Origin: Chloranthus sessilifolius
Lineage: Eukaryota; Streptophyta; Magnoliopsida; Chloranthales; Chloranthaceae
Assembly: GCA_021018995.1 (NCBI GenBank)
Contig: CM037588.1
Span: 92,912,765 to 92,976,764, forward strand
DNA: 64,000 nt
Direction of reading: 5' to 3'
The notes beneath the pieces are model-generated. The model had not been told where the DNA came from and did not search any database. It worked only from the letters and a program-made list of their open reading frames with translations. Positions 15,337-59,790 of the stretch are shown piece by piece; the stretch's first letter is position 1, and each line of letters begins with the position of its first letter. A program made the position numbers and the translations under genes.

Positions 15337-15800
15337 ATTTCGACTGATCGAAATTGAGTTCGATCAATCGAAATGGACTTAAAATGTGAAAACTTTGATG
15401 TATGAGGAAATTCGTTCGATCGAAGTCAAATTCGATCGAACGAAATGAGTTCGATCGATCGAATCTCACACTCGATCGATCGAAACGTATATAAATAGGA
15501 ACATGGAAAAACCCTTTGTGAGAACTTGATTGATCAAAATATATTCGATCGATTGAATTAGAGTTTTCGACCAATCAAAGTAGGATTCGTTCGATCAAAC
15601 TGTGTGATAGCTAAATTGCCTTTGGAAAATTCGACCGATCGAAATATTTTTGATCGATCGAATTATAAGTTTTCGATCGACCGAAAGGGTATTCATTCGA
15701 TCGAACTATATTTGATTTTTTGACTTTTGTGAGAGCTCGACCGATAGAATTTAGTTCGATCAATCAAAACATGATTTCGATTGATCGAAATTGGGATTTG
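15337..15800. repeat. CGATCGATCG palindrome cluster in the Tekay-like LTR
   Basis: About 20 near-copies of a self-complementary motif of the form TTCGATCGATCGAA or TTTCGACCGATCGAAA lie 8-40 bases apart, without a fixed period, with single-base variation. The TATA box lies inside the cluster. A second cluster of the same motif occurs at 22240-22665 in the same element. Confidence 0.9.
15487..15500 (+). promoter_or_regulatory. Candidate TATA box of the LTR promoter
   Basis: TATATAAATAG at 15489-15499 is a close match to the plant TATA box, set between CGATCGATCGAAA and a GGAACATGG sequence. It would place the transcript start around 15520-15530. Position inside the LTR is inferred only from the motif. 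Confidence 0.5.
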
Positions 15801-17181
15801 ATCGATCAAAATTCCCAGACTTGGAATTTTGGTAAGTTTTGACTACGAGATTTTGAGGGGAGTTATCCTAACATGTTTAGCACTGTTCTAATGAGTGAAC
15901 ATTGGATTTTATATTTTAGGTGACTTAGTATTGTATGATGATGAGGGGGCTAACCCAAACGGCGGTGTGAGCTAGTGCGGGTTAAGAGCTCGAGGTAAGG
16001 AACACTTGACACCATGTGCATTGTTACGTTAACATGTGTGTGTTATGACATGATTGTTTCTTTGAATTGATCATATGTGTGGTTACGAATAAAATTTGGA
16101 AGGACATGTGCATCCATATGTTTTTGATTCATGCATGAGTTGTGGAATCTTTTGAGATTCAATCTAATGTGTTGTACAAGTATCTTCACACTTCTTTCTG
16201 ACCTTTGATCTAAATTATAATTATTACTTTACACGGCGATGAGCTATATGTACGCACTTCGATTTAAGGTTTTATGTGAATACCCAACTGGTACGGCGGC
16301 TAATCCGTACACCTTTGTGCTATGTGTTTTGTGACTCCTACCGCATGACAAAATATATGTTCGGCCAAGCGTTCAACTTTATGGGACCTTAGATATATGT
16401 GAAAATGGTTCATATGAGCGACGATGGTGGGTATTTCATCGGGGGCTTGAGGCTATAGCTCCTCATTCTATTACTTTAAACATACCATTTTAAGTTTTTC
16501 TTTTCTTGTGTTGGAAGAAGATGTGGACCTTTCTCTTTTAAAATTCGAACAAGCTTTGTACCTATGTTTCATTCCATGACCATACACTGTGCATACGTTC
16601 TGATTACTCAGTTTCATTATGCCATAAGATCTATGTTGCCGTTACAATAAGCATGCTATGAGTTTTTTCTTACTGAGCTTGGATGAAGCTCATTCCTCGA
16701 CTATATGTCATAGGTTCAGGTGAAGACGTTGATACCAGGATTTTCGAAAGGGAGGTTTTTGAGCTAGCTTCGGGGGAGGACTTGGAGGAGATTCACCATT
16801 AGAGCTGGTTTCTTTGTACTAGGCCAGAGTAGGTCCGGCCCTAGGATTCAGGATGTATTGGTTTAACTTTGGTTGCAAAGTCTGTAAATTTTGCAAATAA
16901 TTGTACTTCTTTTGGTGAACCATGTTTCGGTAAGGTACGACCATTTCCGGTGGTTCTTGTCGGTTCTTTTTCCATAAGGTATCATATGAAATTAGAACCA
17001 TCATTTTGAGCTTTTGATGAATAGTACTAGTTCTTTTTTGCTATGATGATTCATTGGATATGGTTCTGCTTTGTTTTCTACTGTACAACTGTATGTTACG
17101 TGCTTCATTCGGGGGCTCGGCCTTGGCGCCAGCCCACTGACGGCGCAAGCTTCGGGGTGTCAAAACCTGGGCTGTCATAGT

Positions 17182-17193
17182 TGGTATCAGAGC
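17182..17193 (+). other. Primer binding site (initiator tRNA-Met)
   Basis: TGGTATCAGAGC is the standard plant LTR-element primer site complementary to initiator tRNA-Met. It lies two bases after the LTR end, and the usual ATGG follows. Confidence 0.95.
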
Positions 17194-17302
17194 ATGGTCT
17201 TAGAGGCGTCTGACAAGTCTTAAATTATTTCGAGATTGAGATTTTGTTGGATACTAGGGACTGTCTGTTAATGAGACTTTGGTTTCATTGTAATAGATTC
17301 CA

Positions 17303-18596
17303 ATGGATGAGCGAGGAAGAGGTAGACCTAGGGGAAGTCGCCAAAGAGGTGAAAGGTGTATGGAGGATATTCCTTCGGGTTTCGAAGGAGAGCAGAGACC
17401 ACCTCCTGAGGTGGAGAGAGGTCACAGAGATGAGTCTTCTGATAGGATGGCCAGGGCTATGGAGGCTATAGCCGCTGCTATGGCTCAGCACACCCATCAG
17501 ACTACACTTTTGATTGAGCAGACGACATTATTAGCCGCAAGCAACATCAGCCATCAGTAGCCACCACCACCACCTCCTACTTTGTTGCCATCCTCATTTG
17601 TGGATTTCAGGAGATTGAGACCTCCTGTGTTCCACAGGCAGATTGATTCGCTTGAAGTGGGGAAGTGGTTGAAACAGATGGAGAAATTGTTGGAGAGACT
17701 GCAAAGCCCTGAGCATGAGAAAGTTGGTTGGGCTTCTTTCCAACTAGAAGGCGACACTGATGCTTGGTGGAAGTTGGTGTTGAGGAAAAGGGAAGCTAAG
17801 GGACCGTACAACCCATGGACGTGGGCAGACTTTGTAATGGCATTTAACAAGGAGTACTTTCCTAAGCAAGTCCGGAATCAGTTGAAGAAAGACTTTACGA
17901 ATCTTGTACAGTGGAGCATGACCGTATGGGAGTACGACAATGAGTTTGTGAGGTTATCACGATTTGCACCAGAATTGGTAGCTACTGAAGAAATGAAGGC
18001 TAGCAGATTCCAAGAAGGCCTGAGACCGAATATACAGGAGAGAGTGTCCATATTTGAATTGGAAGCATATGCTGATGTGATGGGAAAGGCCATCGTTGCT
18101 GAAAGGGACATCAACAAAAGATGAGAGTGGAAGAACAGGCCAAGTCCAGGGGGGGTGAGTGACTATGACTCAGAGAATAACAAGCCGAGGTTGTCAGCAC
18201 CTGCTCTAGTTTCAAGACCATCCTATGCAAATTATCCGAGGTCAAATACTTTCACTTCTACGAGACCATTCCGCAGAGAGGGCCCTACTCAGACTCATAC
18301 GACTAGGGCATCTGTCACACAAGGACCTTCTAGAGCAGCATCTACGAGTCCACAACTAATATGTGCCCGTTGCGGCAAACTGCATAAAACTTTGGTCTGT
18401 AGATGGGACACGGGCGGATGTTTGAAATGTGGGAAAGTAGGCCATATGATACGAGACTGCCCTGAGATGAGAAAGGAGGGCACCGTCTCAACTGCTATCG
18501 CATTGAGACGTACACAATCCATGAGACCTGTTGTTCAAGGTCGTGCCTTTACCGTGACATCAGAAGACACCCAGACAAGCAACGATGTAATGAAAG
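17303..18596 (+). pseudogene. Tekay-like gag with CCHC zinc knuckle, two stops
   Basis: The frame starts MDERGRGRPRGSRQRGERCM. An in-frame TAG at 17558 (Q context) is followed by the capsid domain: RLRPPVFHRQIDSLEVGKWL, LEGDTDAWWKLVLRKREAK, FNKEYFPKQVRNQLKKDF and SRFQEGLRPNIQERVS. A TGA at 18122 interrupts the linker. The nucleocapsid part has CLKCGKVGHMIRDC, a perfect CX2CX4HX4C knuckle, preceded by CARCGKLH. The frame is the same throughout. At 18596 it runs into a GT...AG gap after codon AAA G. gag would form the cytoplasmic particle around element RNA. Confidence 0.9.
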
Positions 18597-18738
18597 GTAT
18601 AACCTTCTTGTTATGTTTGAACTTATTTATTTGTCTTCTAGCTGAAGAAAGTGCATTGATAAGAAAACTTCTAGGTACATTTTTGTGTGGTCATGACATG
18701 CATATCTGAACATAGTGTATATATTAAATGATATATAG
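18597..18738 (+). other. Intron-like 142-bp insertion between gag and protease
   Basis: The upstream frame ends ATG AAA G and is followed by GTATAACC; the gap ends TATATATAG and the protease frame resumes with GT ACG CTA CAA. Taking it out joins gag and protease in frame (MKG then TLQLYRE). The inside is AT-rich with stops. This has every mark of a spliceable intron, though a decayed insertion cannot be excluded. Confidence 0.7.
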
Positions 18739-22091: not shown

Positions 22092-22894
22092 TCATGAGAA
22101 GGAGAAATTTTTTGTAATAGTCCTTTGTGGTCAAATTATATGTAAATACTTTGAATGATCAATGACAAGGATGAAGTGGATGTTGAAGCATGAGAACGAG
22201 AAAGAAAATTCAAAAACACAAAAAATTCTGTTGTTCTGCTGATTCGATCGACCGAAGTTCATTTTCGTTCGATCGAATATGATTTTGATCGATCGAGGTG
22301 TAAATCGACCAATCGAAATATCTTGGTAGAAAGTCAATTTTTTTTCCTGCATTTTAAAGCTTATTGAATTTGTTCGGTCGAATTTAATTTCGATCGATCG
22401 AATTTCTTTTTGACTGGACGAAAAAATTTTCGTTCGATCAGAAATTTCTTTAGGCCTGACAAGCTCGATCGATCAAAAAATATTCGTTCGATTGAATTTG
22501 AACGTTTCGACCGATCGAATTAAAATTTGTTCGATCGAAATGTGAGGCCCATTTTCCGTAACGCTAATTTCGACTGATCGAAATGAGTTTCGATCGATCG
22601 AAATCGAAGTGAATTCTGTATAAGTCAGATTTTGACCGATCGAAATGAATTCGATCGATTGAATTTCATGTATATATATATAAACCGAGTATTTAAGTTT
22701 ATTTTTTTTCAAAATTTTGGGGTTTCCGTTAAGGTTTTTGAGGGTTTTTGTATTGGAGGATCACTAGATCCTTCGAGGAATTGAATCCAAATTGCCTCAA
22801 AGCGATAAACCTTTAAACCTCGATTCTTGATTTCTTGCCTTGGGTTGAAAATTTTCTGATTTGATTAAAACCCTAGTTTTGGTTTTCATAGACT
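22092..22894 (+). promoter_or_regulatory. Inter-gene region with palindrome cluster and TATA box, upstream of ORF3
   Basis: Between the integrase stop and the ORF3 start lies about 800 bp without coding capacity. From 22240 to 22665 it holds some 18 near-copies of the CGATCGATCG motif found in this element's LTR. It is directly followed by TATATATATATAAA (22671-22684) and then a T-rich leader of about 210 bases to the ATG at 22895. I infer a separate promoter for ORF3; the sequence shows only the motifs and the layout. Confidence 0.55.
22240..22665. repeat. CGATCGATCG palindrome cluster upstream of ORF3
   Basis: Irregularly spaced variants of TTTCGACCGATCGAAA and TTCGATCGATCGAA, about 18 in 430 bases. 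They are the same motif type as in the LTR at 15337-15800, but the two regions do not align as a simple duplication; only the motif is shared. Confidence 0.9.
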
Positions 22895-24307
22895 ATGGCA
22901 CCTAAGAAGAAGGCTGCCACTTCTAAAACACCTACATCGAAGCGACCCAAGATCACTTCGGGTCCTTCGCAGCCACCTATTCCACCACCGCAACCACCTG
23001 CCAAGTAACCCGTTGCTCCGCAAACTCCCCAGCACGACCAACCAAGCGAATGGTGGGTTGAAAAGGGTTTTGCCCATGAGTAAACCATCGATCCAGCCTT
23101 ATTCGAAATGCCCAATGTGCCCGGCGTTGACGCTTGGGCACTTGACTATTTAAGCAAGGCGCGATTGGATAATCTTCTCAAACCCCTTCATCAGTACTAT
23201 TACCCACGCCTCGTGCACTTGTTTTACCAAAAAATGTTTGATGGCCCTGACCCTAATACCATTTGCACCAAAGTCGATGGGAAGATGTATGTTTTTACCC
23301 ATGCAATGGCTTGTAGAGCGTTGGAATGTTTTGACTGGTATGGCGAGGGGATTGACTTGTTACCCCCAAATCCCCCAAATTTGACCCATACTTTTGTCAT
23401 CGAGCGGATGACTGGGGGACGAGTTGCACCAGGTCAAGCCATTAAGCGAGCCCATTTGCCGAGCTATATGTGGATGCTCGACACAATCTTCAAGTGTAAT
23501 CTCTACCCGATCCGCCACAAGACTGAGAGATTAGGGGTGTTGATGGAAGCCCAATTCGTGGCTTTTCAGGGTAAATGGTTCGATGCTGCCACTGTGGTTT
23601 TTGTGGGAATCAAGCATGGGAGGAAGAAGCTATGGGCAGGGGCGGAAAAGCCCAAGGAGTATATATCGTATGCTAGTTTGGTCTCGGCTATGTTTGATGA
23701 GTACGCCATGACCTCCATCCACAAGATCTCCTCCAGGGAGCCTAAGTCCTCTGACAATGTGGTGTTCTACACCTTTAAGTATTGGAGGAAGACTTATAAC
23801 CAGTTGAAACCACATCTACAGCCAGCCCCTCAAGCGCCTCCTATCCCTCCTCAACCACAAGATGCACTTGCTCTGGACACACCACTACCTTACCAACCTG
23901 CTCCTGAGGCTCCTGTCCCCGAGCAGCCTGAGGTTATCCCTCCAGTTCACCAACATGTCGACTTAACGATGTCGCCAATCCATCAAGCAGTTCTGATAAG
24001 CAATGAGACGTTGGCTGCTCTCATCCAAGAGAGCAATCGCCAACTCAATCAATGCCTGAACTACTACGAGCTCCTCGTGGAGGACGTGTTGCACGCCATG
24101 TACCCTACTGACTACGCCCAGAGGATGGCGGCCATGCGTGCGCGGGTATTTGGCACTTCTACATTAGACACTGCTGCTGAGGATCCATGGCCTGATGAGG
24201 CGGCCAGTGGGGATCACGCCGACGAGGAGCCGGAGGATGTAGCTGATCCTACTAGTCCGACGGATGCTACTGAAGCAGCTAGAGGAGCTACTGTTGAGGG
24301 ATCATGA
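22895..24307 (+). pseudogene. Accessory ORF3 (Transposase_32-like protein) of Tekay-like element
   Basis: Read from ATG 22895, the product starts MAPKKKAATSKTPTSKRPKI, a basic Pro-rich tail like a nuclear signal. Two in-frame TAA stops follow (23006, 23081), then 399 open codons. The core has LVHLFYQKM, MYVFTHAMACRALECFDWYG, SYMWMLDTIFKCNLYPIRH and EYISYASLVSAMFDE. A Pro-rich linker (about 23820-23960), a Leu-rich helix region and an acidic C-terminus close it. The same layout occurs at 30973-32298 and in the Athila-like element (33511-37070). It resembles the plant 'putative transposon protein' domain (Pfam Transposase_32). Function is not known; it follows pol in the same sense. Confidence 0.8.
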
Positions 24308-28211: not shown

Positions 28212-30364
28212 TGTGACGACCCAACTTTTCCAATCCTTTCGGTGTGGGAAAGGCCGGTTCGCCAACTTATTGATTTCTCAATAAGTCGCATATCAAACAA
28301 AAGCCGGTAGCATAACATAGATCTAAATAGAATCCAAACGAGAAGAAACAGGTACGAAAGCTCATACAAAAATATATCACCAAGAGGAACCACCGGTGAT
28401 GGCCAATCCGATCACCTAAACAATGGTTCCTAATGATGGTTGCTCAAGTGATATCCAAAATATGCAAAACAAGGCCTTAGGCCCATAGTTCAAAATAATT
28501 CCAACTCAAAAAGTACCAAAAGGCAAGACTAGGTCATGGAAAGAACTCCTCTGCTGGGGTCTTAAGCTCGTCCTCAAGGATATAATCAGAGTCCTCTAGA
28601 TCGAGATCGTCTGAGCCTAAATCAGTCCCTGCACCTGTGATGTATAGTCGGGATGAGCTAATATTGAAGCTCAATAGGGGAAACTCATCTAAATTATATT
28701 TTATCGTAAGTAAAGGTTTCCAAAGACAAGAATCAGATCAAATATGGTTTTCAAAAGATGCATTGTAGACTAAATTCCAATTCTGAACAGTGTTTCAAAA
28801 GAAAAGTTATCATGTCCAATATTTTGATGTTTTTAAATTCAGATTTCATGCATGCATCTCATCTTAAAATTATAACTTAATTGTATCTCTCAAATTACAT
28901 ACTAGCATGAGAGCACGAGTATCACCGATGGGAAACCCTACTGACCATCGTCATTCATGAACCCTTTTCCGAAAAGTGCAACAAGCCCCTACGTAGTGAG
29001 GGAAACTTGCACAAGGCTGAAATACTATCAACACGGTTAGCAAAATTTAGGGTTTCGTTCTAAGGAACATCAAATCAAATGCGAATGCCAAACATATCAG
29101 ATTTTATGTACTTAATACATATTCGGATTTTCTCAGTTCTAATACAAAATTCTCATTTAAAGATGAGGTTCAAATTTTCCAAAAGTTATGAGTTCTTATT
29201 TATGTCACAGTTCAAAGTTCTTATTAATATTGGGTCTAACAAAATTCCAGAATTTAAGCTTAACAAAACTAACCAATACTTAAAATAAAATGCAAACAAG
29301 TCTTAGGGTTCCCCTACCTTAACTTGACTTGAAAATGGTCAAAAACATACCAAGAGATCCTCATAGTGAACTTCTAAAAAGGGCCTACAAACATTAACCC
29401 CATAACAGTGTCAAAAGGGTCTATAGATCCAAACAAAAACTAACATAAACAATTCCAAGACAATTCCAAAAACCAGAAAAATAGGGCAGAATTTGAGCAT
29501 CAAATTCACCCAAAGTGCATCTGTCAGTTTTTTCCAAATTCGATCATTGAATTTTAATTCGATGGTCGAATTTAATTTCGACCCTCGAATTTCTCCAGTT
29601 CTGTGTTTTTCAAATCTTGTCTCCTTACTTGATTTCTTTTATTCAAAACATTAACCTGTTGATCTATACTATCTACACCATTTATCTAAACTAATCAGGG
29701 CAAAAAAAATAAAATAACTTTAATCAAAGGTGTTTAAAAGCCTACTTCTTGAAGTTAAATCCTTCGGCTCCTGTTGCTCCAAATTCAAGCACCGGAACAA
29801 ATCCAAGCTTCAATCAAATGGACTCCAAAAATCAGTCCATCTCCAACCTTGCTATGAGAGCAATGATTGCCCAAACTATTCACCAAAGAACAGTCCACTC
29901 TCCCCTAGCCTTCCTTCTCAATACCTTAAATAAATCAAAAGCAAGGCATTAGGCTTATCAATGGCTAAGATGGGGAGAGGGATTATAACAACAAAAGGAT
30001 CTAACAAAGGAGCAATGGGTGCAAAGGCTTCAAATTTAGGGTTCACACGAGAGGAAGAAGAGTGAAACATCTCCTCTATACTTCTCTTTTTATAATACTA
30101 ATAAGTAAAACAAAAATATCTAGATCTTTATGTTTACAATTTTATCCACTTAACTTGCAAGTATTTCCAGTGTTAAGTGCAAACACACAACCTAGTATAT
30201 AAGTCATTAAAAATTTAACTTCTACAAGTCTAAGCCAAAAATCCTTTGACCAAAATTATCATCATACATTAACCTACTCAAATCAACCTGATTTGTCCCG
30301 TAACTTTTTCGGGCATGCTTACCGAGTTAAATGAAATCAGGCCAAAAATATCTGGGATATTACA
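28212..30364 (-). mobile_element. 3' LTR of the minus-strand Tekay-like element
   Basis: On the minus strand it starts TGTAATATCCCAGATATT at 30364 and ends GGGTCGTCACA at 28212, with intact TG...CA ends and about 2.15 kb. It has the conserved 3' motif TTAGCTCATCCCGACTATAC (28680-28627) and a GGCCATCACCGGTGGTTCC block near 28400. A TATA-like TATTATAAAAAG lies at about 30098-30087. A small cluster of TTCGA..TCGAA motifs lies at 29537-29595. Confidence 0.9.
29537..29595. repeat. TTCGA/TCGAA inverted-motif cluster in LTR
   Basis: ATTCGATCATTGAATTT, AATTCGATGGTCGAATTT and TTTCGACCCTCGAATTT lie head to tail. The same motifs (GACCCTCGAATTTCAATTCG) occur at 32565-32655 upstream of this element's ORF3. 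Confidence 0.85.
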
Positions 30365-30972: not shown

Positions 30973-32298
30973 CTAATCCGTCCTATCTGCACCAAATCCA
31001 GTAGCCTGATCAGCTGGAACCTGATCATCATCAGCACCATCATCATCCTCGCTGTCATCCCCCGCATCTGGAGGCACCTCATCACCTGGTCTAGAAGTAG
31101 ACACGTGATGCATAGACGCTCGAATATTTTCCATATAGGTCACGTAATATGCTAGAAAGACATGCCGCATTAGATAGGTCAGTGCTCCCCCGTGTATCTG
31201 CAACTTCCTGCTCATGGAGTCCGTATGTCGAGTCAGCTCCTGAATCTGCTGACTCATAGCAATCATCTGGCTTGTGAACTCCACCAAGGTGAGCACATCA
31301 GTAGGTGGGGGCTGGTCGGTCTCAGGAGCGACATGTTCCGCAGCTAGTTAATCTTCCTCCTCATCATCATCATTAGGAACGACCGCGCCTCGAGGAGCCT
31401 TTACCAATTTATTGTAGGTTCGTCCCCAATCGACCAGTTTATAAGTCTTCAAACTGGCAGTAGACTTAGGCTCAGTAGACAGAATTTCATAGGCTGGACC
31501 TGCACGATAATCCCCAAGCATCAATGAAATCAATCGTGCATAGGGGATGCCTTTGGCCGGGGTCTTTATCTTTCTACCCATTTTCTCATGGGCCTTAATG
31601 ATACCTTCAAATATAACCACCGGGGTGTTTAACCATCTCTCTTGAAAGGCCAAAAATAAAATCTGTTGGATGGGGCCCCTTCATTCCGATCAATGTCCAA
31701 AAGGATATAGGGTTGCTTTAAAGATCACGTCAAGCATCCACATCGTATCCGGCATTTGAGAATGGGAAATAGCTTTGCCGGATCCATGATTACCTTGGCT
31801 CATCTGAGCTATAACCTCATGAACCAGTACAAGTTTAAGGTGTGGTAGAGCCAGGTCCATGGTGTTGGAATGCTTGGTTGGACACCACATTGCCGAGGCA
31901 ATGTTATCGATATCAAAGGCGTAGTCGCGCCCATCGATTGTGGTATAAATCTTCTTTCCATCCTCCCGTCGCATACGCTTATAAAAGAAGCGTACCAAAC
32001 AGAGATAGAAATGGGTGTGAAAGGGCTATAATAGTGGTGTTAATTGGGCTTTCTCCAAATAATCCAAAGCCCATTGCGTAGTGGCCTACTGATCGAGGAG
32101 TTCGAGATCGAAGATCCACTTGTCAGCGAACCCCTTAGCACCCCAATATTCATTGGGTTGCTCACAGACCTGTGGGGGTGGCACAAGGAGTTGAACCGGT
32201 CGTGGAGGTGGTTGTGGGGGTTGGCTTGAAGACCCAACTTTAGAGGCTGGCCTTTTAGAAGTTGGAACCCTTGTGGTGGTTTGTTTCTTAGGCCCCAT
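30973..32298 (-). pseudogene. Accessory ORF3 of the minus-strand Tekay-like element
   Basis: It starts MGPKKQTTTRVPTSKRPASK at 32298, the same basic start as the ORF3 at 22895. Core blocks are CLVRFFYKRMRREDGKKIYT, MWMLDVIFKATLYPFGH and IPYARLISLMLGDYRAGPAY. After an acidic stretch comes a helix-rich tail (IAMSQQIQELTRHTDSMSRK) and an acidic end with DDDGADDDQVP. Stops and frame changes occur near 32086, 32030, 31690 and 31345. Overall length fits the 470-codon plus-strand ORF3. The tail suggests self-association; function unknown. Confidence 0.78.
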
Positions 32299-33012
32299 AG
32301 CAAAAAGGAAAAGAAAAACACAGAATTGCAAAAAGAGAATCCACAAACCCACAAGAAGAAAAGCGTTTTACCTCTTGAAAAGCGCACAATCAGTTTCTTA
32401 GCAATGCAATTCAATCCCTATGAAAAACCGAGTTGAATCCACTTGATTTCGGCCAAAAAAATGAAAGAAAACTCAAAGGAACCTAAAAACCCAGAAACCC
32501 TAAGCTCGACCCTGTTTCCAAAGTGTGAAATGGCAAAAGAACAAAACCCAACCGACTTAAACTCGAAAAATTTGACCCTCGAATTTCAATTCGATGGTCG
32601 AATTTAATTTCGACCCTCGAATTTTGCAAAAACCTGTCAGTGTCTACACAAAATTCAACCTTCGAATTTTACAGTGACTGTGTACATCTAAATTTTGAAA
32701 AATTTTACTTTCTCAAAGTGTTCTCCGTTCTATTTTTTGACCTCCTCAAAGCCCGTATATGTATAATATCGAACCCAGACTATAACCCAGTGCACAACTA
32801 TACTTTTACTAGTGCAATTGACCAACAAAATTAAGACTCAGTCCGATTGATCGCATGTCTTTTAGGTAAAGTAAACACAAACAAGTAGGTACAAATTTCT
32901 GAAATTTGTATATCAGTTTGAACTATGAAATACATTGCAATCCCAATTTCCATACATTGTTTACACCCTCATAAGTACAATTTCTTAACAATTACTCAAA
33001 CAAATGTGAAAA
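32299..33012 (-). promoter_or_regulatory. Gap between integrase and ORF3 with motif cluster
   Basis: Non-coding. The cluster at 32565-32655 repeats the TTCGACCCTCGAATTT and AATTCGATGGTCGAATTT motifs of this element's LTR. No strong TATA box is seen between it and the ORF3 start. A promoter role is inferred by analogy with 22092-22894. Confidence 0.45.
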
Positions 33013-34403: not shown

Positions 34404-36258
34404 TTGGGTGTTGACAAGTGAAAAATACCATTTTTCACCCCTAAACTTAAGTCTTGATAGACCTTTGAGAGAACTAAATAAGTGTTTTAAGTGCCTATGT
34501 TGCAGCTAACAATAAAGACAGGCTTAACCATAAAAGCAGCTCAAAAGTGCTAAAAAGATGACAATCCATGTCAGTCCAAAGGAAGGAAGTGAAGAAACAA
34601 CCTCATCAGCTGTGGAAAGGTCTAAAAGGAAGAGGCAAAGATCTGTAAGAGAAGCAGGGAACAATTCGAACAGAGAATGCACTCTGAGTTCTTTTCAAAA
34701 GAACTGCACTTTCAGAAGAACGGAACTCTGCGAAAAGGACTAAACCTCCAGGCTTAGTTTTCGAAGAGCATCTGAACTCTTCGAAAAGAAGATTGAACTT
34801 TGCGAAAAGGAGAAAACACAATTCGAAGAGAGATTGAACATTGCGAAAAGAGCTTCAGAAGTCACAGTACTTTGTGAAAAGGCCCTTAAGCTCTGCGAAA
34901 AGGAATTATGGAGATTCGCAGCTTTAACAAGGGCAATTCAGTAATCTGTTGCATGCGTCCCAATGCATTTTAAAACCCAAGGACATTCCGGAAGATTCTG
35001 AGCACGAACCAAAGGCATATTCCACCCCATGTGAACACCCAAAGATGAAATTTCTTGGCGGGAACTTCTAGAAGCTCAAACAGATTTTTGAATTACATAA
35101 CAGAATTGATGCTTTTATCACCTGATTGGCTGAACCAGATCGAAGAATTCTGATTGGCCAGAATAGATCTGGATCCTCGAGCTCGACCACCATTGGTCAA
35201 TACATTCTGAACACCTCTGATTGGTTGAAACACATCTGAGCTGGACTTGGGGAAAACTATAAATAGATGAACCATTTGCCCAATTTGGGCATCCAGATTT
35301 TGAGTTTCATTTCTAATCCCCCATTTCCCGACCAAATGACTTATGCGCAATCCTTGTAATAGCCTACTTTGTACTTGCATTTGAGAGCTGTGAGATACTG
35401 CTGTAACTCAAAGGAGAGTTTGCATCCAAGACTGCAAATCCGAGAGCTGTTAAGCCGTGCTCTATAAATTGTAAGGATGAATTTTAAAAGGTTGCTGTAA
35501 ACTATGCATTCTCCATTGGACTCATGTCAAGGGTTCCCTCTGATCTCCTCAGTACATTAGACTCCTTTAGATTCATTATTGTGCATGCAATTTCCCTTGA
35601 TTCATTAATCCTGTAAGAATTAGTGTTGGTAACCTAGTCTCTTACAGCATTTGTAGTGATGTTTATTGTTCTGAATTGAGGATTTGGATTAAAGACTATT
35701 GGATGGTTTGTGGCCATTAAAGTGGACAGACCATAGCCATAAGCGTAAGCCTAATCCTTGAATTAGATTTATCTCTCTTACATCTGTGCTTGTAGCCAGA
35801 TGAAGATTGGATCACCTCTGTTGAGCTGCAGTTATTCTCATTAGATTTCAAAGACCAAATCAGATTTAGATATTACTTCTCCATCTTTGTTTCAATCACT
35901 CTCCCAACTCGGATCTGGATCATTTAGTTTAAATTTTTCTTTGTTTTTAGTTTGTTAAACGTGACAAATTCAAACCTCTTATCTTATCAGTTTTCTAGAT
36001 AGGATAAGAAGCCAGATCTGGTAGCTCAGATCTGGAGGTTTATCTTACATTTTAGATAAATTCTCTGTGGACGATCTTTCACTCACTTACTTTTAAAACT
36101 TGCTACAATTGGCCCTGATCTTGCAGGCTAATTCTCTTCTAACTGTGCTGATATTTCTTCATTTGTTTATATAGTCTAGAGCCACTGTAATTTAGCAGCT
36201 ATAAATCTGTTTTCAAAACTCACATAAATCAAGCACACTAAGAAGCAACAACATTGGG
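34404..36258 (+). mobile_element. Solo LTR of family A with TTGGG target duplication
   Basis: TTGGG at 34404-34408 and 36254-36258 flanks an LTR (34409-36253, 1845 bp) starting TGTTGACAAGTGAAAAATAC and ending AGAAGCAACAACA. It matches the LTR at 1001-2815 in reverse. No primer site or polypurine tract adjoins it, so two LTRs recombined and the body was lost. Its CTTTGCGAAAAG cluster is at 34670-34920. It interrupts the accessory ORF of the Athila-like element and is therefore younger than it. Confidence 0.95.
34670..34920. repeat. CTTTGCGAAAAG/CTCTTCGAAAAG motif cluster in solo LTR
   Basis: At least eight copies of the motif (for example AACTTTGCGAAAAGG, AACTCTTCGAAAAGA, CTCTGCGAAAAGG) at 20-45 base spacing. 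The motif core is a palindrome (TTCGAA or TTGCGAA with flanking CTTT/AAAG). Confidence 0.85.
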
Positions 36259-37070
36259 CAGGACCTGAGCCTCAGCTTTCTTCTTTTTCTGGCCCCCCAT
36301 CAAGCTCCTGTTGATTCCCCATTGCCTCTTGGCAAAGGTAGTAGGGGTAAGGGTGGTGGTCTGCTCAGTCCTTCCTATCTTGTGTCCCCCTTTGATCAGC
36401 AGCAAGGTAATGATTCTTGCATAGGGTAGAGTGTGAGACTTCTTGTTTGATCCTAACTTCTCCACTGTGTCTTTCATTGCCTCAAAAATTAGCCAGGCTG
36501 CATGGAAGCCATGGCCCATGTGGAAGGAGTAAACAACATCCGCAATGGGGGTCCTCCTCTCCTGCTGATGTCCTGAGCAATATATGTTCTTTCGCAGGAC
36601 TTGGTCAATGAATAGGAGTTCAGGTTCCAATTCTCTCCTTCTGATCGAGTCTCCTGTGGCTTTTAATTCTCTAGTTAGGGCCCGTGCAATTGTGTCAATG
36701 GATGCACGCAGAGGGGGGCCATATCCACAGCTAGGATTGAATGCTGTTGGGATGCCCAACACTTCAGCAATCATCTTAGGGCCCACTAACATATCAAAGT
36801 CATCAATCATCACCAGCAAGCACCCTTGTCCATCGTTGTCCTTCTTGACCTTGATGTGCTGATAAAACAGCTAGACTAGCCTGGGGTAGGTTAGTGCTGG
36901 GATTCCTCCATGAGCTCAGAAGGGGTAGAGAACTTAGTGGTTGGTACCGCCTCCTCCTCAACCACTTCCTTTATTTTTTTGGGGGACTTTGAAGTCTTGG
37001 CCTTTTTAGGGGTGGTCTCTGCAGGGTCTTTTTCCTTTCCTTTTCTCTTCTGTGCAGTTTTTAGAGCCAT

Positions 37071-38126
37071 TTCTAACTCTGTCTTCACGTTTGAGAAATG
37101 GGGGCTGAGATCTAGGGTTTTGTTTAATTTGACGCACATGGCACCTCAAAATCTCTGAGCAGAGGGCAATGGATGGGGATGATGAGCCATAGGAGTGATG
37201 CTGGAGGGGAGAGGGGAGAGCGCCAGAAGCTAGGGTTTCACAGAGGGAAGAAGGAAGAAAATAATGAAAAAGGGACAAAGCGCAGGGTTGAAATACTTAT
37301 CGCGAAGCTCAGCGCACTTTGGAACATCTGGTCATGGGTTTGGAAATGAACCTAGTGAAGGTGTTGAGTAAATCTGGATTGCGCGACAATCTCTCAAGTT
37401 GTCTTTGGAGCGCGCAACAGAGTGAGATTAATTCATGTGAATTGCGCGAGCGGCTCCTAGGTCTCTTTTGGATTGCGCAAAAAGCTCTGAGGTTCATTTT
37501 GAATCTCGCGACAGACTTAGAATCTCACGATAGTAAATGAAGTATGTCTGTTGAATTGCACGAGAGTCTCCTAGTTTACCTTGTGAACCTCGTGACAGCC
37601 TGATAATCTCGCAATAACTACAGAATAGCTCGATGTGGACCGCGCGAGAGGTTGTCAGGTACACCTGAATCTCACGATAGGCTTTGAATGTTTTTATGCA
37701 AACTGCGCGACATGCTCCCAGGCTTCCTTTTTAGCCTCACGATGGCTTTTAAATCTCGCGATAGTCTTTCAGACTGTCATTTTGGACCCAGCGACAGTAA
37801 GGTATTAAACAGAGAGCATGTGCTCTCTGTTCTATCCCTTTGCCTGTTTGCTTGTGGTTGGGTCCTGGGCATGACTCTCTCCTATGACTACCTCTAGACA
37901 CATGTAAACTCGATCATCCAATCAAAAAAACCTCCCACATTAGGCATGCAACAGAAGCTATCAATTAAAAAATAGTAAGAATGAAACCATGCATCAAAAG
38001 TTTAAAACAGATTGGTCCAGATTCAGATAAGACCATGAACAAATCCTAAAGAATAGAAACAAAAGAAAGCAAGATAAATCAACCAAAAACAACATACATA
38101 TGATACAATAATGACACACCTGTGGA
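37071..38126 (-). promoter_or_regulatory. Gap between Athila-like pol and accessory ORF, with palindrome cluster
   Basis: About 1 kb without a gene. From 37290 to 37800 it holds some 15 motifs of TCTCGCGATAG, TTGCGCGA and GCGCGAGAG type, matching in kind the cluster in this element's LTR (45790-46310). A perfect palindrome with 10-base arms lies at 37809-37830. No clear TATA box. A promoter for the accessory ORF is an inference. Confidence 0.5.
37290..37800. repeat. TCGCGA/GCGCGAG motif cluster upstream of accessory ORF
   Basis: Motifs such as ATCTCGCGATAG, GGATTGCGCGACAATC, GGACCGCGCGAGAGG and AATCTCACGATAGG recur every 25-45 bases in otherwise AT-rich sequence. Some show CG to TG or CA changes (CTCACGATAG), as expected from methylated CpG decay. 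Confidence 0.85.
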
Positions 38127-45567: not shown

Positions 45568-45575
45568 CTTATATA
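45568..45575 (-). promoter_or_regulatory. Candidate TATA box of the Athila-like LTR
   Basis: The minus strand reads CTGCTATATAAGCCTAAGCC. It lies about 980 bases from the LTR start and downstream of the TCGCGCGA cluster in the direction of transcription. Confidence 0.5.
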
Positions 45576-45789: not shown

Positions 45790-46310
45790 TGTCACGTGGT
45801 AGATTTGGCGTCGCGAGGTTGCTTTGACTTGGAGTTCATGCAGTCGCGGGGTTGGTGCTTTAATCATCACGGGAATGCTTTGGGAATCGCGGGGTTGGTA
45901 TCTTGCATTTGAATGGCGCGAGAATGGCGCGCGCAATTTGTTCCTTGTGAATCCTGCGGCGATCCTCACGAAGAGAATAATATTTATAGGTTTCTGGATC
46001 ATGCGAGCAGTTCCTTGAAAGTGTGTGCCCCACGACTACTACGCGACAACTGCGCGCGAGAGTGCCTGGAGCTCTCTCTCCTTAGTGAATCGTGTGACAA
46101 TTGAAGACTCCTTTCTTGAGCTGCGCAAAACTGCGCGAGCACTTAAGACTGAGCCTCGCGAAGTTTGCTTTTCAATTCTTTCTGGCACCAAATCGCGCGA
46201 GAATGGCGCGAAAACTGCACGACTAGTTTTGTGCCGTCTTCAGAAGCCCGTGACGTCTGCGCGAAGGCATCATCTCTGGTTCAATTGAACCTTGCGACAT
46301 CTACGCGAGG
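45790..46310. repeat. GCGCGAG/TCGCGA motif cluster in the Athila-like LTR
   Basis: Motifs such as AAATCGCGCGAGAATGGCGC, GCGACAACTGCGCGCGAGAG, GCGTCGCGAGGTTG and CCTCGCGAAG recur every 20-50 bases. The motif type matches the cluster upstream of this element's accessory ORF (37290-37800). Confidence 0.85.
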
Positions 46311-46554
46311 CATTCTTCTTGGTCTGTTTCTGATTTGCTGTGCCTATGCTACAGCCAACTCTCTGTTTGGGTTCTATCTTCACATTTCTGAGGGGCCTCT
46401 GGGTCAATAGTGAGCTCCTTGGCATGGTTAGGGGGTTATTTTCAGCTGCTGCTTATTACCTATAGAACAGACTCAAAACACATTTATTAAATGATTAAGG
46501 GTCTAACAGAGATTAAGTTAAGGGGTGAAAAGTGGCACTTTTCAGGTCTTAACC

Positions 46555-54568: not shown

Positions 54569-56729
54569 TGTAATATCCCAAGAATTTTGAACCCAAACAC
54601 GTTCACCTCGGTATACGTGCCCCGATGAGTCGCACAATTTTTTCTTGAATTTTTGGGCTAATTAAATATAAAGAATATTTAAGTGAGGAGATTTGAATTA
54701 GATATGGTAAAGGCCATTAGCCAATAACATGTACACCGAATCGTGTATGCGTGCTCAACACCCAAGTAAATTTAAATTTAAATGGATAGAATTTATAAAG
54801 CAAATATCATGATATTTTGAGTGGGCTTTTACCTTATAAGAAGAGAAGGAAGAATGAGCTAACTCCCACTTATCCTTCTTTCGTGAGAACCAAGTTTGAG
54901 ATATTGCTAACTTTCTTCATTCCCTCGCAAGGATCACCTAGGTTTTCGACTGCTCTCGCGATCCCAACCGTAGAGAAGCAATGAAATCTACTATGAATTA
55001 GATTGAGGTTGTTAAGGGAGAGTTTTCCGACATTGGTGAGAACTGTTCTTGATGAATGTGTGATCTATAAATCCACGTAACGAGGAGATTAGACTCTATT
55101 TGTGATAATTAAACTCGTTCTGGAATCTGCCGGCTAGAGGCTTCGCAAGATTCAATCCGACGCTTAGGAATTGGATCAACGGAAGCTGCGGGAGTCAACC
55201 TTGAGAGGTAGGCTCTTAATTTCATCTTATTAGTTATTTTACCTAAATTTAGGTTAGTTTATATGTGAATTTAGAAATGGAATCAGTCTGATTTTGGAGA
55301 AAATCAAGTCTTGTGAAAGAAACCTGAAAATAGCAGAAATCTGTAAGAATCGAACGTTCGAATCCATAATCGAACGTTTGAAATTGAAATCGAACGATCG
55401 ATTTTGGAATCGAATGATCGATTTTGGCATAGACTAACAAGCTCGATTTATGAAGAAATCGAACGTTCGAAAATGAAACAGAACGTTCGAATTTCCCCTG
55501 TTTCTGACTTTATTTATTTTTCTTTGAAAAAACTCTAGGAAACTTTTATCTATCAGTTTTAGATACTATTAACACATTATATGGTGTTAATTAAATATAG
55601 GTTAAGTGTGGAAAACCTTGGTGAGGTATCTTAGATAAACTCTAAGGGAGGGAAACCTTAATATTTATTGCATTTTCTAAGATAATATGAAATTGTTTTG
55701 ATCATGAATTCCAAATTTGATTTAAATCTGACATAATTTTGATTAGCATGAACTCTGAACTATGAATTCTGAATAATTATTGAATTTGCATATGAATATG
55801 AAATTCTGAAATCTGAATCTGAAACTCTAAAATCCCGAATTTGAAACTCTGAATCCTGAATCTGAAAATGCATTAAAATACATTCTAATTATTTGATTAG
55901 CATTTGCACTTGATTTAAGGTCCATTAGAATGAAACCCTAAATTCTATGAACTGTGTTGACGGTAAAACTGCCTGGCGCAAGTTTCCCTCATAATACAGA
56001 GGCTTGTTGCAATTCCTAAAAAAGGGTTCATTGAACTATGATAGTTAGTAGGGTTTCCCATCGGTATTATTCCTACTCTCATGATATAGTAACTTGAGAA
56101 AACTTTAAGTTATGATTTAAGTCATTTAATAAAGGAGCATGCATGAATTAGAATCTGAAACAATATGAACTCTAGACTAGTTTGATTTCCGTTCATAACA
56201 CGTCACCTGATTTTAGAATTAGAATTTGGTAAATGAATCTGTTTGAAATACCTGTTTTGAAAACACATACATTACTTCGATTTCAATCTTTGAAAACATC
56301 TTGATTGAAATGTAATAAAAATGAGTTTCTTCTGCGGAGCTTAGACTGTTAGCTCACCCTGACTATACGTCACATGTGTAGAGACTCAGGCTTAGGGTTA
56401 CGAGAGTGATCCATACTACGAGCCAGAGGAAGAGTCAGAAATCCTTGCTGACCAGTTCTTTCCTTGACTTAGGGTTGTGAGCTTGGTATAATTCTTTTTG
56501 GTATATATTTGTGTAGGACTATTTTGAATTATGGGCCCAAGGCCTTGTTGTGTGATGGTACTTATATAATTTTGAGAAACCACTATCAGGAACCATTATT
56601 TAGGTATTGGATTGGCCATCCCCAGTGGTTCTTCTTGGTTCCTTTTTTACATATGATTTATGTGAGAGATCTCTTTAGTTGATATGTTTAGTTGTTTGTT
56701 TTACTTCTATGCTTGCTTTTATTGGGTTT
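54569..56729 (+). mobile_element. LTR of a Tekay-related family, plus orientation, 3' end truncated
   Basis: It begins TGTAATATCCCAAGAATTTT. Near its end, 56343-56390 has the conserved motif TTAGCTCACCCTGACTATAC, and 56580-56640 has GGAACCATTATTTAGGTATT then GGCCATCCCCAGTGGTTC, both shared with the LTR at 28212-30364 (minus). It contains an AACGTTCGAA cluster (55345-55490). No LTR end or primer site is seen before the next LTR piece at about 56730. It interrupts the Helitron fragment. Confidence 0.8.
55345..55490. repeat. TCGAACGTTCGA motif cluster in LTR
   Basis: AATCGAACGTTCGAATCC, AATCGAACGTTTGAAATTG, AATCGAACGATCGATTTTG, AATCGAATGATCGATTTTG, AATCGAACGTTCGAAAATG and CAGAACGTTCGAATTTCC follow at about 18-25 base steps. 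Cores are palindromes (AACGTT, CGATCG, TTCGAA). Confidence 0.9.
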
Positions 56730-57076: not shown

Positions 57077-57128
57077 ACCACAAGATTTTTGATGGTCCCG
57101 TCGCGACGATCCGCTCACTCGAAAAGAT

Positions 57129-57140
57129 ATAGAGTCGCCA
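57129..57140 (-). other. Primer-binding-site-like sequence (tRNA-Arg type)
   Basis: The minus strand reads TGGCGACTCTAT after CTCCGGG. TGGCGACTC is the primer site reported for Ogre/Tat elements. The LTR end before it is not a clean CA. Confidence 0.5.
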
Positions 57141-57765
57141 CCCGGAGCTTTCGGTGTCCTAGGATATCGAAATCAATTTTATAAGCACCGAAGTACCAAA
57201 AATATAACTCTGATCCAGTCTACGCCAAAGGCTCTTGGGTAGGGGCTTCGGTTATCGATCGAGAAGGTGTTAGGCACCCTATCAACCTGCTCTAAAGCAA
57301 TCTCTACTTATGGCCAAAGATAAAAAGAAAATGAAAATAAAAGAGCACTTCCTCTTGCCCGAAGGCACTATGATCCTATTTGTGCCCCTCCACTACTATC
57401 GAGATTTTGATGGCGTAACGACACAAATTCAAATATAGAGCAAAAGTTAAGAAGGCAGAGGAGTAGAGGAGAGAGCCGGAGCTCTCAGGCCCTTGTAGCA
57501 GCCTTGTGGACCTTCGTGTAAATGCACTTAAGGAGCTTCCGATGGCTTGCATGATGGAATGGTGGGTTCTAACCTTTAAAGCTTGTTAGCTAAGGGGTAG
57601 CTCACACCTAAACTAAGGGATCTATGATGGAATATAGGGCTCAAAAGAGGTTTTCGAATTCTGGAATTTATATGGGAAATGGTGCACCAAAGGGGAAGAA
57701 AGCTTTCTTACTCTTTTCTCTCTTCTGGAAAAATTTTCAAGCCCTTAATCCAGGGGGGGTGCCTC

Positions 57766-57777
57766 TCTATTTATAGG
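57766..57777 (-). promoter_or_regulatory. Candidate TATA box of the Tat-like LTR
   Basis: CCTATAAATAGAG on the minus strand is a near-consensus plant TATA box, about 800 bases into the LTR and about 270 bases after the palindrome cluster. Confidence 0.55.
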
Positions 57778-58044
57778 AAAAGGGTAGGTTAGGAAGTTGA
57801 TTAAGGGCTAATTGGGATTAGCAATTAGGTAACCTCCTAATCTAAGGTTTCCTAGGATTTTGAGAGCTTGGAAATGTGGGCAAGGGACTTCAATGGTGGA
57901 TGATAGCGTAAGGTTTCAAATGACTAAAGGATTGCAAATAGAGTAAATATGGGTGCAACAGTCCTAATGAAACCCATCCCAAATATTGAGATAGTCAACA
58001 AGTCAAACCCCAGAAATAAAATTCGAGCAAAAAACCAGCAGTTA

Positions 58045-58215
58045 CTATAGCTAAGCCTAGCGCATGTACTAGATGCGCCAAGCATAGCTACAGTGTCTGG
58101 AAGTCTAGAGCCCAAGGTGGGTCCCATAGATGCTTGGCGCGTGTATTAGATGCGCAAAGCCATTTTTGGAGAAAAATGGCTTGACGCATGTAATACATGC
58201 GCCATATATGCCCTG
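58045..58215. repeat. GGCGC...GCGCC long palindromes in Tat-like LTR
   Basis: CTAGCGCATGTACTAGATGC then GCCAAG (58058-58083), CTTGGCGCGTGTATTAGATG then CGCAAAG (58133-58161) and GGCTTGACGCATGTAATACA then TGCGCC (58178-58204). Each is an imperfect palindrome of 26-30 bases. The same motif is at 59600-59790. Confidence 0.9.
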
Positions 58216-58578
58216 CCCTAGCCAAGTGTGGTTTCTTGGCGTTGCTCGGATTGCGGTAACTTTTGGCGTACAACTCTGATTGAGATGATTTTTGGTTTGT
58301 TAGAAAGTTGAGAACCTCTACTTTTCAATGGTACAAAATTCAGTCTTAGTAGAGGTCCTTGTCAGCTCTCGTTCATCTCTCTTTAACCAATGCCCGGGAG
58401 GGTTAACTAAGGGTTTTAGAGAGGTTCCTACAGGTTGGGGATAATTTCTAAGGGTATGGGAAAGTTCCTAAGGGCTTGGGAAGATTCCTAAGGGTTTGGG
58501 AGAAGCATTAGAAGCTCGGGGGTGTGCCTCTCTCGAAGTATATTCGATCGGGCCTTGGGCCAAATTTGGGTGTCTACA

Positions 58579-59595
58579 GATGCCTCTCTTTAGTATCCGA
58601 TGATTAATGATCGAATGCCAAAGATAAGAGACACCCAAAGAGGCCCAAGGCAACACTGACGGGCCCGTTGCATTTAGAACGAACCTCAAACATCAGGTGG
58701 ATAACATGGGGAGTAAACGAAAGCCTTGTATGTTAGGAAAAATATCCGTTTCTCAAGGCGATCGGTCCCCAAGCACTTAGCGACATTACTGGGCATAACC
58801 GAGATGGATCAAGTTGCAAAAGCTCAATATGCTAGAAAAATGTCTGCTTCTCGAGACGATTGAAGATATTTTATGCTCAAGTTTCATTCTGAATAAAATA
58901 GCTCCGTAAGTGAGAGGGTAATCGACCCATACTCAAAGATAGGCGTGAAGTAAATATGCGAAGGTCTATAGTTTGTGTCCAACATTGTGAGGCATTGATT
59001 GCCCCATTTGACTGGCCACGGGTGCCCCTGCGTGAAGCAAGGCTAGAGATCTTTGGGGCGAACCCATCCGTCTCGAAATTGACTTAGCATGACTACCCGA
59101 GTGGAGCGAGTTGATCTCGCAATGCTTTTTGGGAGTATATGCCACTTTTTATTTATTTCTACGTAGCATTTTTTGTTATTCTACGTGGGGTTTTATGTGG
59201 AATTTTTGTTATTTTATGTGGTTTTTTTTGTATTATTTTGTGTGAATTTTTTGTGATCTTATGTGGATTTGTATGTGGAAATTGTTTTGTTATTTTTTGT
59301 GGATTTTTATGTGGACAGTTTTTGGTATTTCATGTGAGTTTTTCTAGTATTTCATGTGGAATTTTTTTGTACTTTTTTATGTGAATTTGTCTATTATTTC
59401 ATGTGGAATTTTTTGGGACTTTTTATGTGAATTTTTCTATTATTTCGTGCGGAATTTTTTAGATTTTTTATATGAATTTCATGTGTGCTCCGGATGCTTA
59501 TTGATCCCAAGCCACTTATTCTAGCACAACTTCTTGGGCAGATCAAATGGAGATCGACGTGCCGCTTTAGGGGCGTATGCACCCTTAGAGCCAAG
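58579..59595 (-). other. Gene-free internal sequence with T-rich minisatellite
   Basis: No gene seen. From about 59150 to 59480 lies a degenerate tandem array of TTATTTCATGTGGAATTTTT-type units of roughly 20-35 bases. The remainder is unique-looking sequence between the array and the LTR. Confidence 0.6.
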
Positions 59596-59599
59596 AAAC

Positions 59600-59790
59600 G
59601 GGATCAGGCTAGGCGTGTTTAATACACATGCCAAGTTAAATCCTAGCTAACAATGTCTTGGCACATGTATTACACACACCAGTCCAGATCTGGCAAAAAA
59701 TAGCCTGGCGTGTGTAATACATGCGCCAGGCCAAAAGGGAGGGCAAAATTGCTTGGCACGTGTATTAGATGCGCCAAGCAAAACCTGGGG
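59600..59790. repeat. GGCGC...GCGCC-type palindromes upstream of the plus-strand remnant
   Basis: CTAGGCGTGTTTAATACACATGCCAAG, CTTGGCACATGTATTACACACACCAG, CCTGGCGTGTGTAATACATG then CGCCAGG, and GCTTGGCACGTGTATTAGAT then GCGCCAAGC lie within 190 bases. They match the long palindromes of the adjacent LTR in form and length. Confidence 0.9.

What the first reader, a model, noticed from the sequence alone, without database searches (positions are those of the whole stretch)
15337..59790. Same palindromic motif cluster occurs in the LTR and again just upstream of the accessory gene, in four elements
Seen: Tekay-like plus element, CGATCGATCG clusters at 15337-15800 (LTR) and 22240-22665 (before ORF3). 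Tekay-like minus element, TTCGA..TCGAA at 29537-29595 and 32565-32655. Athila-like element, TCGCGA/GCGCGAG at 45790-46310 and 37290-37800. Tat-like element, GGCGC..GCGCC palindromes at 58045-58215 and 59600-59790. The motif differs between elements but matches within each, and the pairs do not look like block duplications. Inferred: the accessory gene has its own promoter, sharing regulator sites with the LTR, and motif identity is kept matched inside an element. Alternatives are RNA hairpins for packaging, or gene conversion of repeats. I know of no description of this pairing.
Basis: partly seen in the sequence, partly recalled or inferred. Interest (0 to 1): 0.88.

Follow-up and report, generated by a model that had tools for sequence, protein, structure and literature searches.

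The report
Shared operator arrays at two promoters
Several plant jumping genes (LTR retrotransposons) carry evenly spaced copies of an element-specific, mostly palindromic DNA site in the repeats that drive them and again in front of an extra gene; the arrangement looks like one control switch for two promoters, was described in 2010 for a different retrotransposon group, and is here seen in Ty3/gypsy-type elements.

Summary
All four cluster pairs are real, and each LTR cluster matches its own internal cluster far better than random windows do (0 of 1000 in each of eight tests). Sampled genome copies repeat it: element 1, internal array in 9 of 10 and LTR array in 10 of 10; element 4, LTR sites in 13 of 13 testable copies; element 2, 2 of 2; Athila-like LTR, 6 of 7 testable, one counterexample. 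In element 1, sites are helically phased, more conserved than linkers and end 7-9 bp before a TATA box; C-to-T and G-to-A changes do not differ significantly, against an RNA stem. Best reading: one DNA operator array serving the LTR promoter and an internal accessory-gene promoter. Another lineage without ORF3 shares element 1's motif, so a host factor is at least as likely a binder as the accessory protein. New here: Ty3/gypsy elements, helical spacing, an apparently antisense case. No expression or binding data.

The parts
14753..17180 (+). Element 1 5' LTR (approximate ends, by reading; PBS-like TGGTATCAGAGC at 17182)
15339..15810 (+). Element 1 LTR operator array: 18 sites near TTCGATCGATCGAA; TATA-like 15488 inside the array
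22243..22663 (+). Element 1 internal array: 16 sites, same motif and phase
22671..22684 (+). TATA box 8 bp after the last internal site
22895..24307 (+). Accessory ORF3 of element 1 (start codon by reading; open frame 23084-24307; weak Transposase_32 PF20167 match, E 0.078)
28213..30363 (-). Element 2 LTR (approximate ends, by reading)
29536..29592 (-). Element 2 LTR array: three sites AAATTCGANNGTCGAATTT, 19 bp apart
32568..32669 (-). Element 2 internal array: four sites, spacing 19, 19, 45
30973..32367 (-). Element 2 ORF3, broken; two pieces 36% and 35% identical to element 1 ORF3
36238..37085 (-). Athila-like ORF3, first part (PF20167 E 3.5e-4, below cut-off; copies show a basic NLS-like N-terminus); the rest lies beyond an inserted LTR at about 34409-36253
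37290..37800 (-). Athila-like internal array: 15 sites in one orientation, 19 or 30-33 bp apart, and one reversed
45790..46315 (-). Athila-like LTR array, CGCG-cored sites, irregular; TATATAA at 45575 (-) behind it, a further TATA match at 45988 inside it
58057..58205 (-). Element 4 LTR array: three 25-bp inverted repeats; LTR start about 58578 on the minus strand
59610..59777 (+). Element 4 internal array: four inverted repeats, 47-48 bp apart, left of a putative, unconfirmed antisense ORF (about 60645 on)

Best explanation
Each element carries a cis-regulatory operator array in two copies: one in its LTR and one in an internal promoter before the accessory gene (between pol and the 3' LTR). 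A sequence-specific DNA-binding protein, probably a dimer or a cooperative oligomer because sites are mostly palindromic and, in element 1, lie on one face of the helix, occupies both arrays, so the gag-pol transcript and the accessory transcript are switched together. The site sequence has diverged between families, but both copies inside an element follow. Shown: the paired arrays, their presence in other copies, site-over-linker conservation and helical spacing in element 1, its fixed TATA box. Inferred: protein binding, transcription from the internal promoter, coordinated control. Whether the protein is the host's or the element's own is open.
For: Matched motifs. Replication: element 1 in 9 of 10 internal and 10 of 10 LTR stretches; element 4 in 13 of 13; element 2 in 2 of 2; Athila-like internal cluster in 29 of 30 loci, the window's own included, and LTR cluster in 6 of 7 testable. 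Site v linker columns among element 1 copies: identity 0.843 v 0.709 (internal) and 0.866 v 0.703 (LTR); purine/pyrimidine identity, blind to CpG decay, 0.978 v 0.849 and 0.980 v 0.858. Phase in the two window arrays of element 1: all-pairs distances peak at 10.5 bp, R 0.59, 0 of 2000 jittered sets as high, linkers about as unlike as chance; R is 0.59 without the weakest site and 0.52 with the three flanking hits added. Of 77 adjacent spacings in ten window arrays, 50 are 19-23 and 11 (all Athila-like) are 30-33 bp (element 4's five spacings and the irregular Athila LTR array were not in this count). Element 2 double sites: 39 of 68 listed places at 19-20 bp and 16 at 38-39. TATA box 7-9 bp after the internal array in 9 of 9 copies that have it.
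Against: No transcript, methylation or binding data. Some spacings are not whole turns: element 4 47-48 bp, element 2 46-47 bp in 12 of 68 places; the ORF3-less family has R(10.5) of only 0.18. Among element 1 copies the internal arrays peak at 20.0 (R 0.53) above 10.5 (0.40), so plain 20-bp periodicity is not excluded. In element 1 part, and in element 2 all, of the LTR array lies downstream of the likely TATA box, not in a classic enhancer position; in three of the ten copies no strict TATA match lies in the LTR stretch. No strict TATA match precedes ORF3 in element 2 or the Athila-like element. L073 breaks the matching. Copies are related and not independent trials.
Confidence: 0.75

Rival explanations
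1. A host transcription factor family binds the arrays; each lineage has adopted arrays for some member, and the accessory promoter uses the same factor so that both genes are on together.
For: The element 1 motif is also in the LTRs of a separate lineage. The one copy read inside has gag-pol over 4.7 kb, no tblastn match to the three ORF3 queries beyond a chance six-residue hit (E 0.86), and one 3-mismatch site only; its RT is 33-48% identical to element 1's. LTR repeats read by host factors are the usual case (Tnt1 and ONSEN, recalled; Sirevirus RM boxes resembled stress-factor sites, PMC2829016).
Against: Motif varies between elements while adjacent spacing near 20 bp recurs, which would need several host factors with one geometry. 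Half-sites look like small steps (TTCGA-TCGA-TCGAA in element 1, TTCGA-NNN-TCGAA in element 2) between elements whose ORF3 pieces are 35-36% identical; this is an inference from two elements.
Confidence: 0.5
2. The accessory protein itself binds both arrays and acts as transactivator or anti-silencer of its own family (foamy-virus Tas or VANC-like).
For: Internal arrays lie right before the accessory gene; the one ORF3-less element read has none. ORF3 is well preserved in copies (150, 102 and 150 places scored for three queries, 68-93% identity apart from the window's own; first looks of 39100, 44454 and 22278 candidates were not verified) and the Athila-like protein has a basic nuclear-signal-like N-terminus. 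Dense short motifs in non-coding DNA, co-oriented and different between related families, are the VANC target pattern (PMC5735166).
Against: No DNA-binding or VANC domain found (PF20167 below its cut-off, otherwise only chance-level hits); no homologue in the protein search; structure prediction did not finish. The same motif is used by an element in which no ORF3 was found.
Confidence: 0.35
3. RNA hairpins in the genomic RNA for packaging, export or small-RNA production.
For: Element 4 repeats could form strong stems (by reading; not folded here); maize Sirevirus palindrome clusters attract small RNAs (PMC10760457 passage citing Bousios 2016).
Against: Element 1 sites: C-to-T 61 v G-to-A 76 (internal, p 0.23) and 75 v 87 (LTR, p 0.39); G.U 43 v A.C 57 (p 0.19) and 43 v 74 (p 0.005, the wrong way round), so pairing in the sense RNA is not favoured; helical spacing has no obvious RNA meaning; Athila internal sites are directional. 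Not tested for elements 2-4.
Confidence: 0.07
4. Passive repeats: short tandem or duplicated blocks spread and homogenised by replication slippage or recombination between LTR and internal region, with no function.
For: 149-bp block 75% alike in element 1; 37 of 38 bases alike in element 2.
Against: Linkers in the window copy are about as unlike as chance while sites are held, transversions included, across copies whose ORF3 is 69-86% identical to the window's; TATA distance is fixed.
Confidence: 0.1

Closest known systems
Sirevirus (Ty1/copia) RM boxes in LTR and 5' of ENV (Bousios et al. 2010, PMC2829016; abstract, sections 9 and 19 and found passages read)
   Same: Element-specific palindromic repeated motif, 8-32 copies per element, in the LTR; extra copies before the accessory gene (77 of 79 linker copies upstream of ENV in nine ENV elements, none in four without); spacer varies between elements; no common binding factor identified.
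   Different: Superfamily (copia v gypsy); CGG-CCG core there, TCGA, CGCGA or TGGCGCA here; no helical spacing in the parts read; no antisense accessory gene in the parts read.
VANC anti-silencing in VANDAL transposons (PMC5735166, parts 1-2 of 6 read; PMC10398659 passages)
   Same: Dense arrays of a short family-specific motif in non-coding regions that change between related families.
   Different: DNA transposons; VANC protein shown to bind; no VANC domain found here.
Foamy virus Tas with LTR and internal promoter (starts of abstracts of PMC4929722 and PMC8670036 in a search listing; three passages of PMC7828637)
   Same: Second promoter before accessory genes, driven together with the LTR.
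   Different: Animal retrovirus; Tas binding to both promoters stated there; no palindrome arrays known to me.
Grande gene23 and Retand antisense accessory ORFs (PMC7264820 and PMC11963269 passages)
   Same: Accessory gene between pol and 3' LTR, antisense, with its own promoter in Grande; resembles element 4's layout.
   Different: No motif shared with the LTR is mentioned in the passages read.

Membership tests
Sirevirus RM-box system | Ty1/copia Sirevirus polyprotein | tested here: not met
   Element 1: gag, RVP_2 and RNase H domains precede the integrase-end domains (Tf2-type SH3; chromodomain below cut-off), the gypsy order (the integrase core was not scanned). Athila-like: RNase H then integrase H2C2 in one frame. 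Elements 2 and 4 not tested
Sirevirus RM-box system | Palindromic repeated motif clustered in the LTR | tested here: met
   (Athila-like only partly palindromic)
Sirevirus RM-box system | Extra copies just 5' of the accessory gene | tested here: met
   elements 1, 2 and Athila-like; element 4's gene not confirmed
Sirevirus RM-box system | Extra copies absent when the accessory gene is absent | tested here: inconclusive
   true in the single ORF3-less element read
Sirevirus RM-box system | CGG-CCG core | tested here: not met
   cores TCGA, CGCGA and TGGCGCA
VANC/VANDAL anti-silencing | VANC protein with DUF1985/DUF287 | tested here: not met
   Pfam scan of nine ORF pieces up to E 5 finds PF20167 below cut-off and a few unrelated hits of E 0.04-0.25
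VANC/VANDAL anti-silencing | Protein binds the motif and lowers methylation | not testable with these tools
   no binding or methylation data
Foamy-virus-like internal promoter | Promoter before the accessory gene | tested here: inconclusive
   TATA at a fixed distance in element 1; none by strict pattern in element 2 or Athila-like; no transcript data
Tekay, Athila and Tat labels | RT phylogeny | not tested

The most novel reading that the evidence does not exclude
The accessory ORF of these Ty3/gypsy elements encodes a family-specific DNA-binding regulator that occupies helically phased operator arrays in its own promoter and in the LTR, giving a self-amplifying, silencing-resistant loop, and protein and operator coevolve so that related families stop recognising each other: a VANC/Tas-type system in plant LTR retrotransposons, possibly shared with Sireviruses by convergence.
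Probability: 0.3. Interest if true: 0.85.

Novelty: new variant of a known kind. Interest (0 to 1): 0.6.

Why it matters
The function of accessory ORFs between pol and the 3' LTR of plant retrotransposons is an open question. A paired operator array suggests that these genes are made from their own promoter under the same control as the LTR, and supplies an exact DNA probe (the array) with which to find the binding protein. The same design in Ty1/copia Sireviruses and in several Ty3/gypsy types would make it a recurring rule rather than a quirk of one genus. The genome holds more than 30,000 copies of three of these sites (14,269, 2,128 and 17,973), a large pool of potential binding sites.

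Tried and rejected
Rejected: block-free origin; RNA-stem selection in element 1; plain inverted-repeat density as a detector. Two variants of the element 4 repeat were first taken as separate families for a swap test, but sites of both kinds mix inside elements, so the test was dropped. In the family-level matching test I used the window copies plus 9 of 10 element 1 copies, 4 of 7 testable Athila copies (the four with strong LTR clusters; the two weak ones and the counterexample L073 left out) and 9 of 13 element 4 copies; 25 of 26 LTR clusters and 26 of 26 internal clusters then matched their own family best, so that test only confirms. In one search element 4 and the Athila LTR array were left out; two longer matches starting at a place already counted were left out, and the list covers only the first 100 rows, all on C1.


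Full report
WHAT WAS CHECKED. The window lies in a 2.17 Gb genome of 32 contigs (G000:C5:92912765-92976764); that it is a plant's is my reading of its retrotransposons. I read all four cluster pairs and compared the eight clusters by strand-symmetric 6-mers: apart from a cluster with itself, the own-element pair scores highest in every row, and in all eight directed tests 0 of 1000 random windows of equal length reach the observed score. Elements 1 and 2 also resemble each other, because their sites share the half-site TTCGA...TCGAA with a four-base or three-base spacer. Pattern scans show how exclusive the sites are inside 64 kb: the element 4 repeat (<=8 of 25 mismatches) occurs only at its seven places, and the element 2 site with <=1 mismatch only at six, two in the LTR and four before ORF3.

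REPLICATION IN OTHER COPIES. Element 1 ORF3 finds 102 scored places of 44,454 first-look candidates, 68-86% identical besides the window's own. From ten plus-strand places over the identity range (86 to 69%) I fetched the stretch before ORF3 and the 3' LTR side: arrays of TTCGATCGATCGAA are in 9 of 10 and 10 of 10. In the tenth the place of the internal array is taken by other sequence, LTR-like by reading, with GGCGC-type inverted repeats of its own. Element 4: of 30 loci with an exact site, the LTR boundary was recognised in 14; 13 of these hold an internal site, and LTR sites were found in 4 of 4 loci that reached far enough and in 9 of 9 others after fetching the missing part. In 16 loci the boundary was not recognised; four of them show two clusters 1.3-1.5 kb apart. 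Athila-like: the CG-rich cluster lies before ORF3 in 29 of 30 loci, the window's own included; L019 has none. Of ten stretches aimed at the 5' LTR, the relevant part was covered in seven and the cluster present in six, two of them weakly (9 hits against 21-25); L073 apparently has a different LTR without it, a counterexample to matching; L077 and L080 show no LTR hit and L081 misses the region. Element 2: two more copies fetched, both with LTR arrays (seven and four sites) and weaker internal sites (three and two; shuffles reached the observed number in 0 or 1 of 300).

SPACING. In element 1, adjacent sites are mostly 19-23 bp apart, and the longer gaps (35, 42-44, 52-54, 65) are mostly near multiples of 10.5. 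All-pairs distances in the two window arrays peak at 10.5 bp (R 0.59; 0 of 2000 gap-jittered sets as high), above 20-21 bp; linkers are about as unlike as chance (0.33-0.37 v 0.31), so this is not a recent 21-bp tandem repeat. The value is 0.59 without the weakest site and 0.52 if three flanking weak hits are added. Over the copies the LTR arrays again peak at 10.55 (R 0.48), with 21.35 close (0.46); the internal arrays peak at 20.0 (0.53) with 10.5 second (0.40). Other arrays in the window with other motifs (element 2; 55349-55491; 62567-62976; 47092, 49891, 26301) also mostly have adjacent sites 19-22 bp apart; the Athila internal array uses 19 and 30-33 bp. Element 2 double sites in the genome, with any spacing of 17-47 allowed, fall at 19 (19), 20 (20), 29 (1), 38-39 (16) and 46-47 (12) of 68 listed places. 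Against whole turns: element 4 at 47-48 and the 46-47 class are about 4.5 turns, the Athila LTR array is irregular, and the ORF3-less family has mostly 20-21-bp steps but R(10.5) 0.18.

SELECTION AND STRAND. Among element 1 copies, site columns are more alike than linker columns in both arrays, also when only purine/pyrimidine differences count (0.978 v 0.849 and 0.980 v 0.858; Mann-Whitney p 1.7e-17 and 4.3e-15; columns of related copies are not independent, and sites were labelled by their own match to the motif, which favours them). C-to-T and G-to-A changes in sites do not differ significantly (61 v 76; 75 v 87), and G.U pairs do not exceed A.C (43 v 57; 43 v 74), which speaks against selection for stems in the sense RNA. 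Sites have a polarity: left-half variants outnumber right-half ones 63 to 7 and 80 to 9, in the same direction in both arrays.

PROMOTER CONTEXT. The element 1 internal array ends 8 bp before a TATA repeat in the window and 7-9 bp before one in 9 of 9 copies with an array (in one copy I leave out a stray site behind the TATA box). In the Athila-like and element 4 LTRs a strict TATA match lies 215 and 282 bp after the array (other matches exist: one inside the Athila array, two further down in element 4); in the element 1 LTR it lies inside the array; the element 2 LTR array is about 500 bp behind its only strict match; before ORF3 of element 2 and of the Athila-like element there is none.

THE ACCESSORY GENES. 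ORF3 pieces of element 2 and of the Athila-like element are 36%, 35% and 20% identical to element 1's in the alignment and weakly like Pfam Transposase_32 PF20167 (best E 2.5e-7 among the frames scanned, always below the curated cut-off; one element 2 piece has no hit). PMC11728184 (passages) reports the same domain and a nuclear signal in a sunflower Athila ORF. Element 4's supposed gene is on the strand opposite to its LTR direction and broken; no convincing domain was found. The layout matches the antisense ORFs reviewed in PMC7264820 and PMC11963269 (passages), where maize Grande gene23 is stated to have its own promoter.

WHAT COMPLICATES THE STORY. The motif of element 1 is also present in LTR-like stretches of another family, mostly in 20-21-bp steps and about 107-117 bp before a TATA match. 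Inside one such element I read 4.7 kb: gag-pol pieces, no ORF3 by tblastn with three queries (only a six-residue chance hit), no internal array (one 3-mismatch site), RT only 33-48% identical to element 1's. So an LTR array does not need ORF3. Either a host factor reads the motif, or such elements use ORF3 in trans. I hold the host factor slightly more likely.

AGAINST WHAT IS KNOWN. Bousios et al. 2010 (PMC2829016; abstract, sections 9 and 19 and found passages) describe for Ty1/copia Sireviruses palindromic, element-specific repeats in the LTR before a TATA box and, in ENV-bearing elements only, further copies upstream of ENV, and take them as support for an internal promoter. The pairing is therefore known in kind. 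I found no description for Ty3/gypsy elements, nor of helical spacing, in the listings, which cover open-licence papers only. Working analogues are VANC (PMC5735166) and foamy virus Tas with its internal promoter (starts of abstracts, passages). Membership in Sirevirus, VANC or foamy virus systems is not claimed: superfamily, core motif or protein domain fail, or could not be tested.

VERDICT. Real, replicated in the copies sampled and, in element 1, apparently under constraint; best read as one DNA operator array serving two promoters (0.75). New variant of a known kind. The identity of the binding protein is the question worth an experiment.

Noticed in passing
window 55349-55491: Array of six ATCGAACGTTCGAT-like sites, gaps 20, 20, 20, 49, 20 bp, in an LTR-like stretch that starts at about 54570: a further motif variant with the same spacing.
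   Followed up: partly
window 62567-62976: Array of 15 AATCGATCGAACGATT-like sites (up to 5 mismatches), ten of 14 gaps 19-22 bp.
   Followed up: partly
window 26301, 47092, 49891: AAATCGATCGATCGATTT-like sites, mostly 20-21 bp apart, in three related repeat copies.
   Followed up: partly
G000 genome; L093, L111-L116: Palindrome TGGCGCAACTAATAGTTGCGCCA occurs 17,973 times (<=1 mismatch) v 0 for the reversed control; of 69 gaps between the 70 listed clusters from 48.0 Mb on C1 (earlier listed places left out), 14 are 1.3-2.8 kb, as if paired within elements.
   Followed up: partly
L039, L071, L040: Element without a detectable ORF3 that has element 1's motif arrays in both LTR-like ends and none inside.
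   Followed up: partly
window 34409-36253: An LTR-like stretch of a related Athila type, with TGCGAAAAG repeats, is inserted in the Athila-like ORF3; L073 shows the same type at the place of an element's own 5' LTR.
   Followed up: partly
element 1 arrays in L091-L110: Sites are near-palindromes with a polarity: left-half variants outnumber right-half ones 63:7 and 80:9, same direction in both arrays.
   Followed up: partly
window 37290-37800: The Athila-like core resembles the vertebrate CGCG element TCTCGCGAGA (abstract of PMC6192621 in the listing); no link tested.
   Followed up: no
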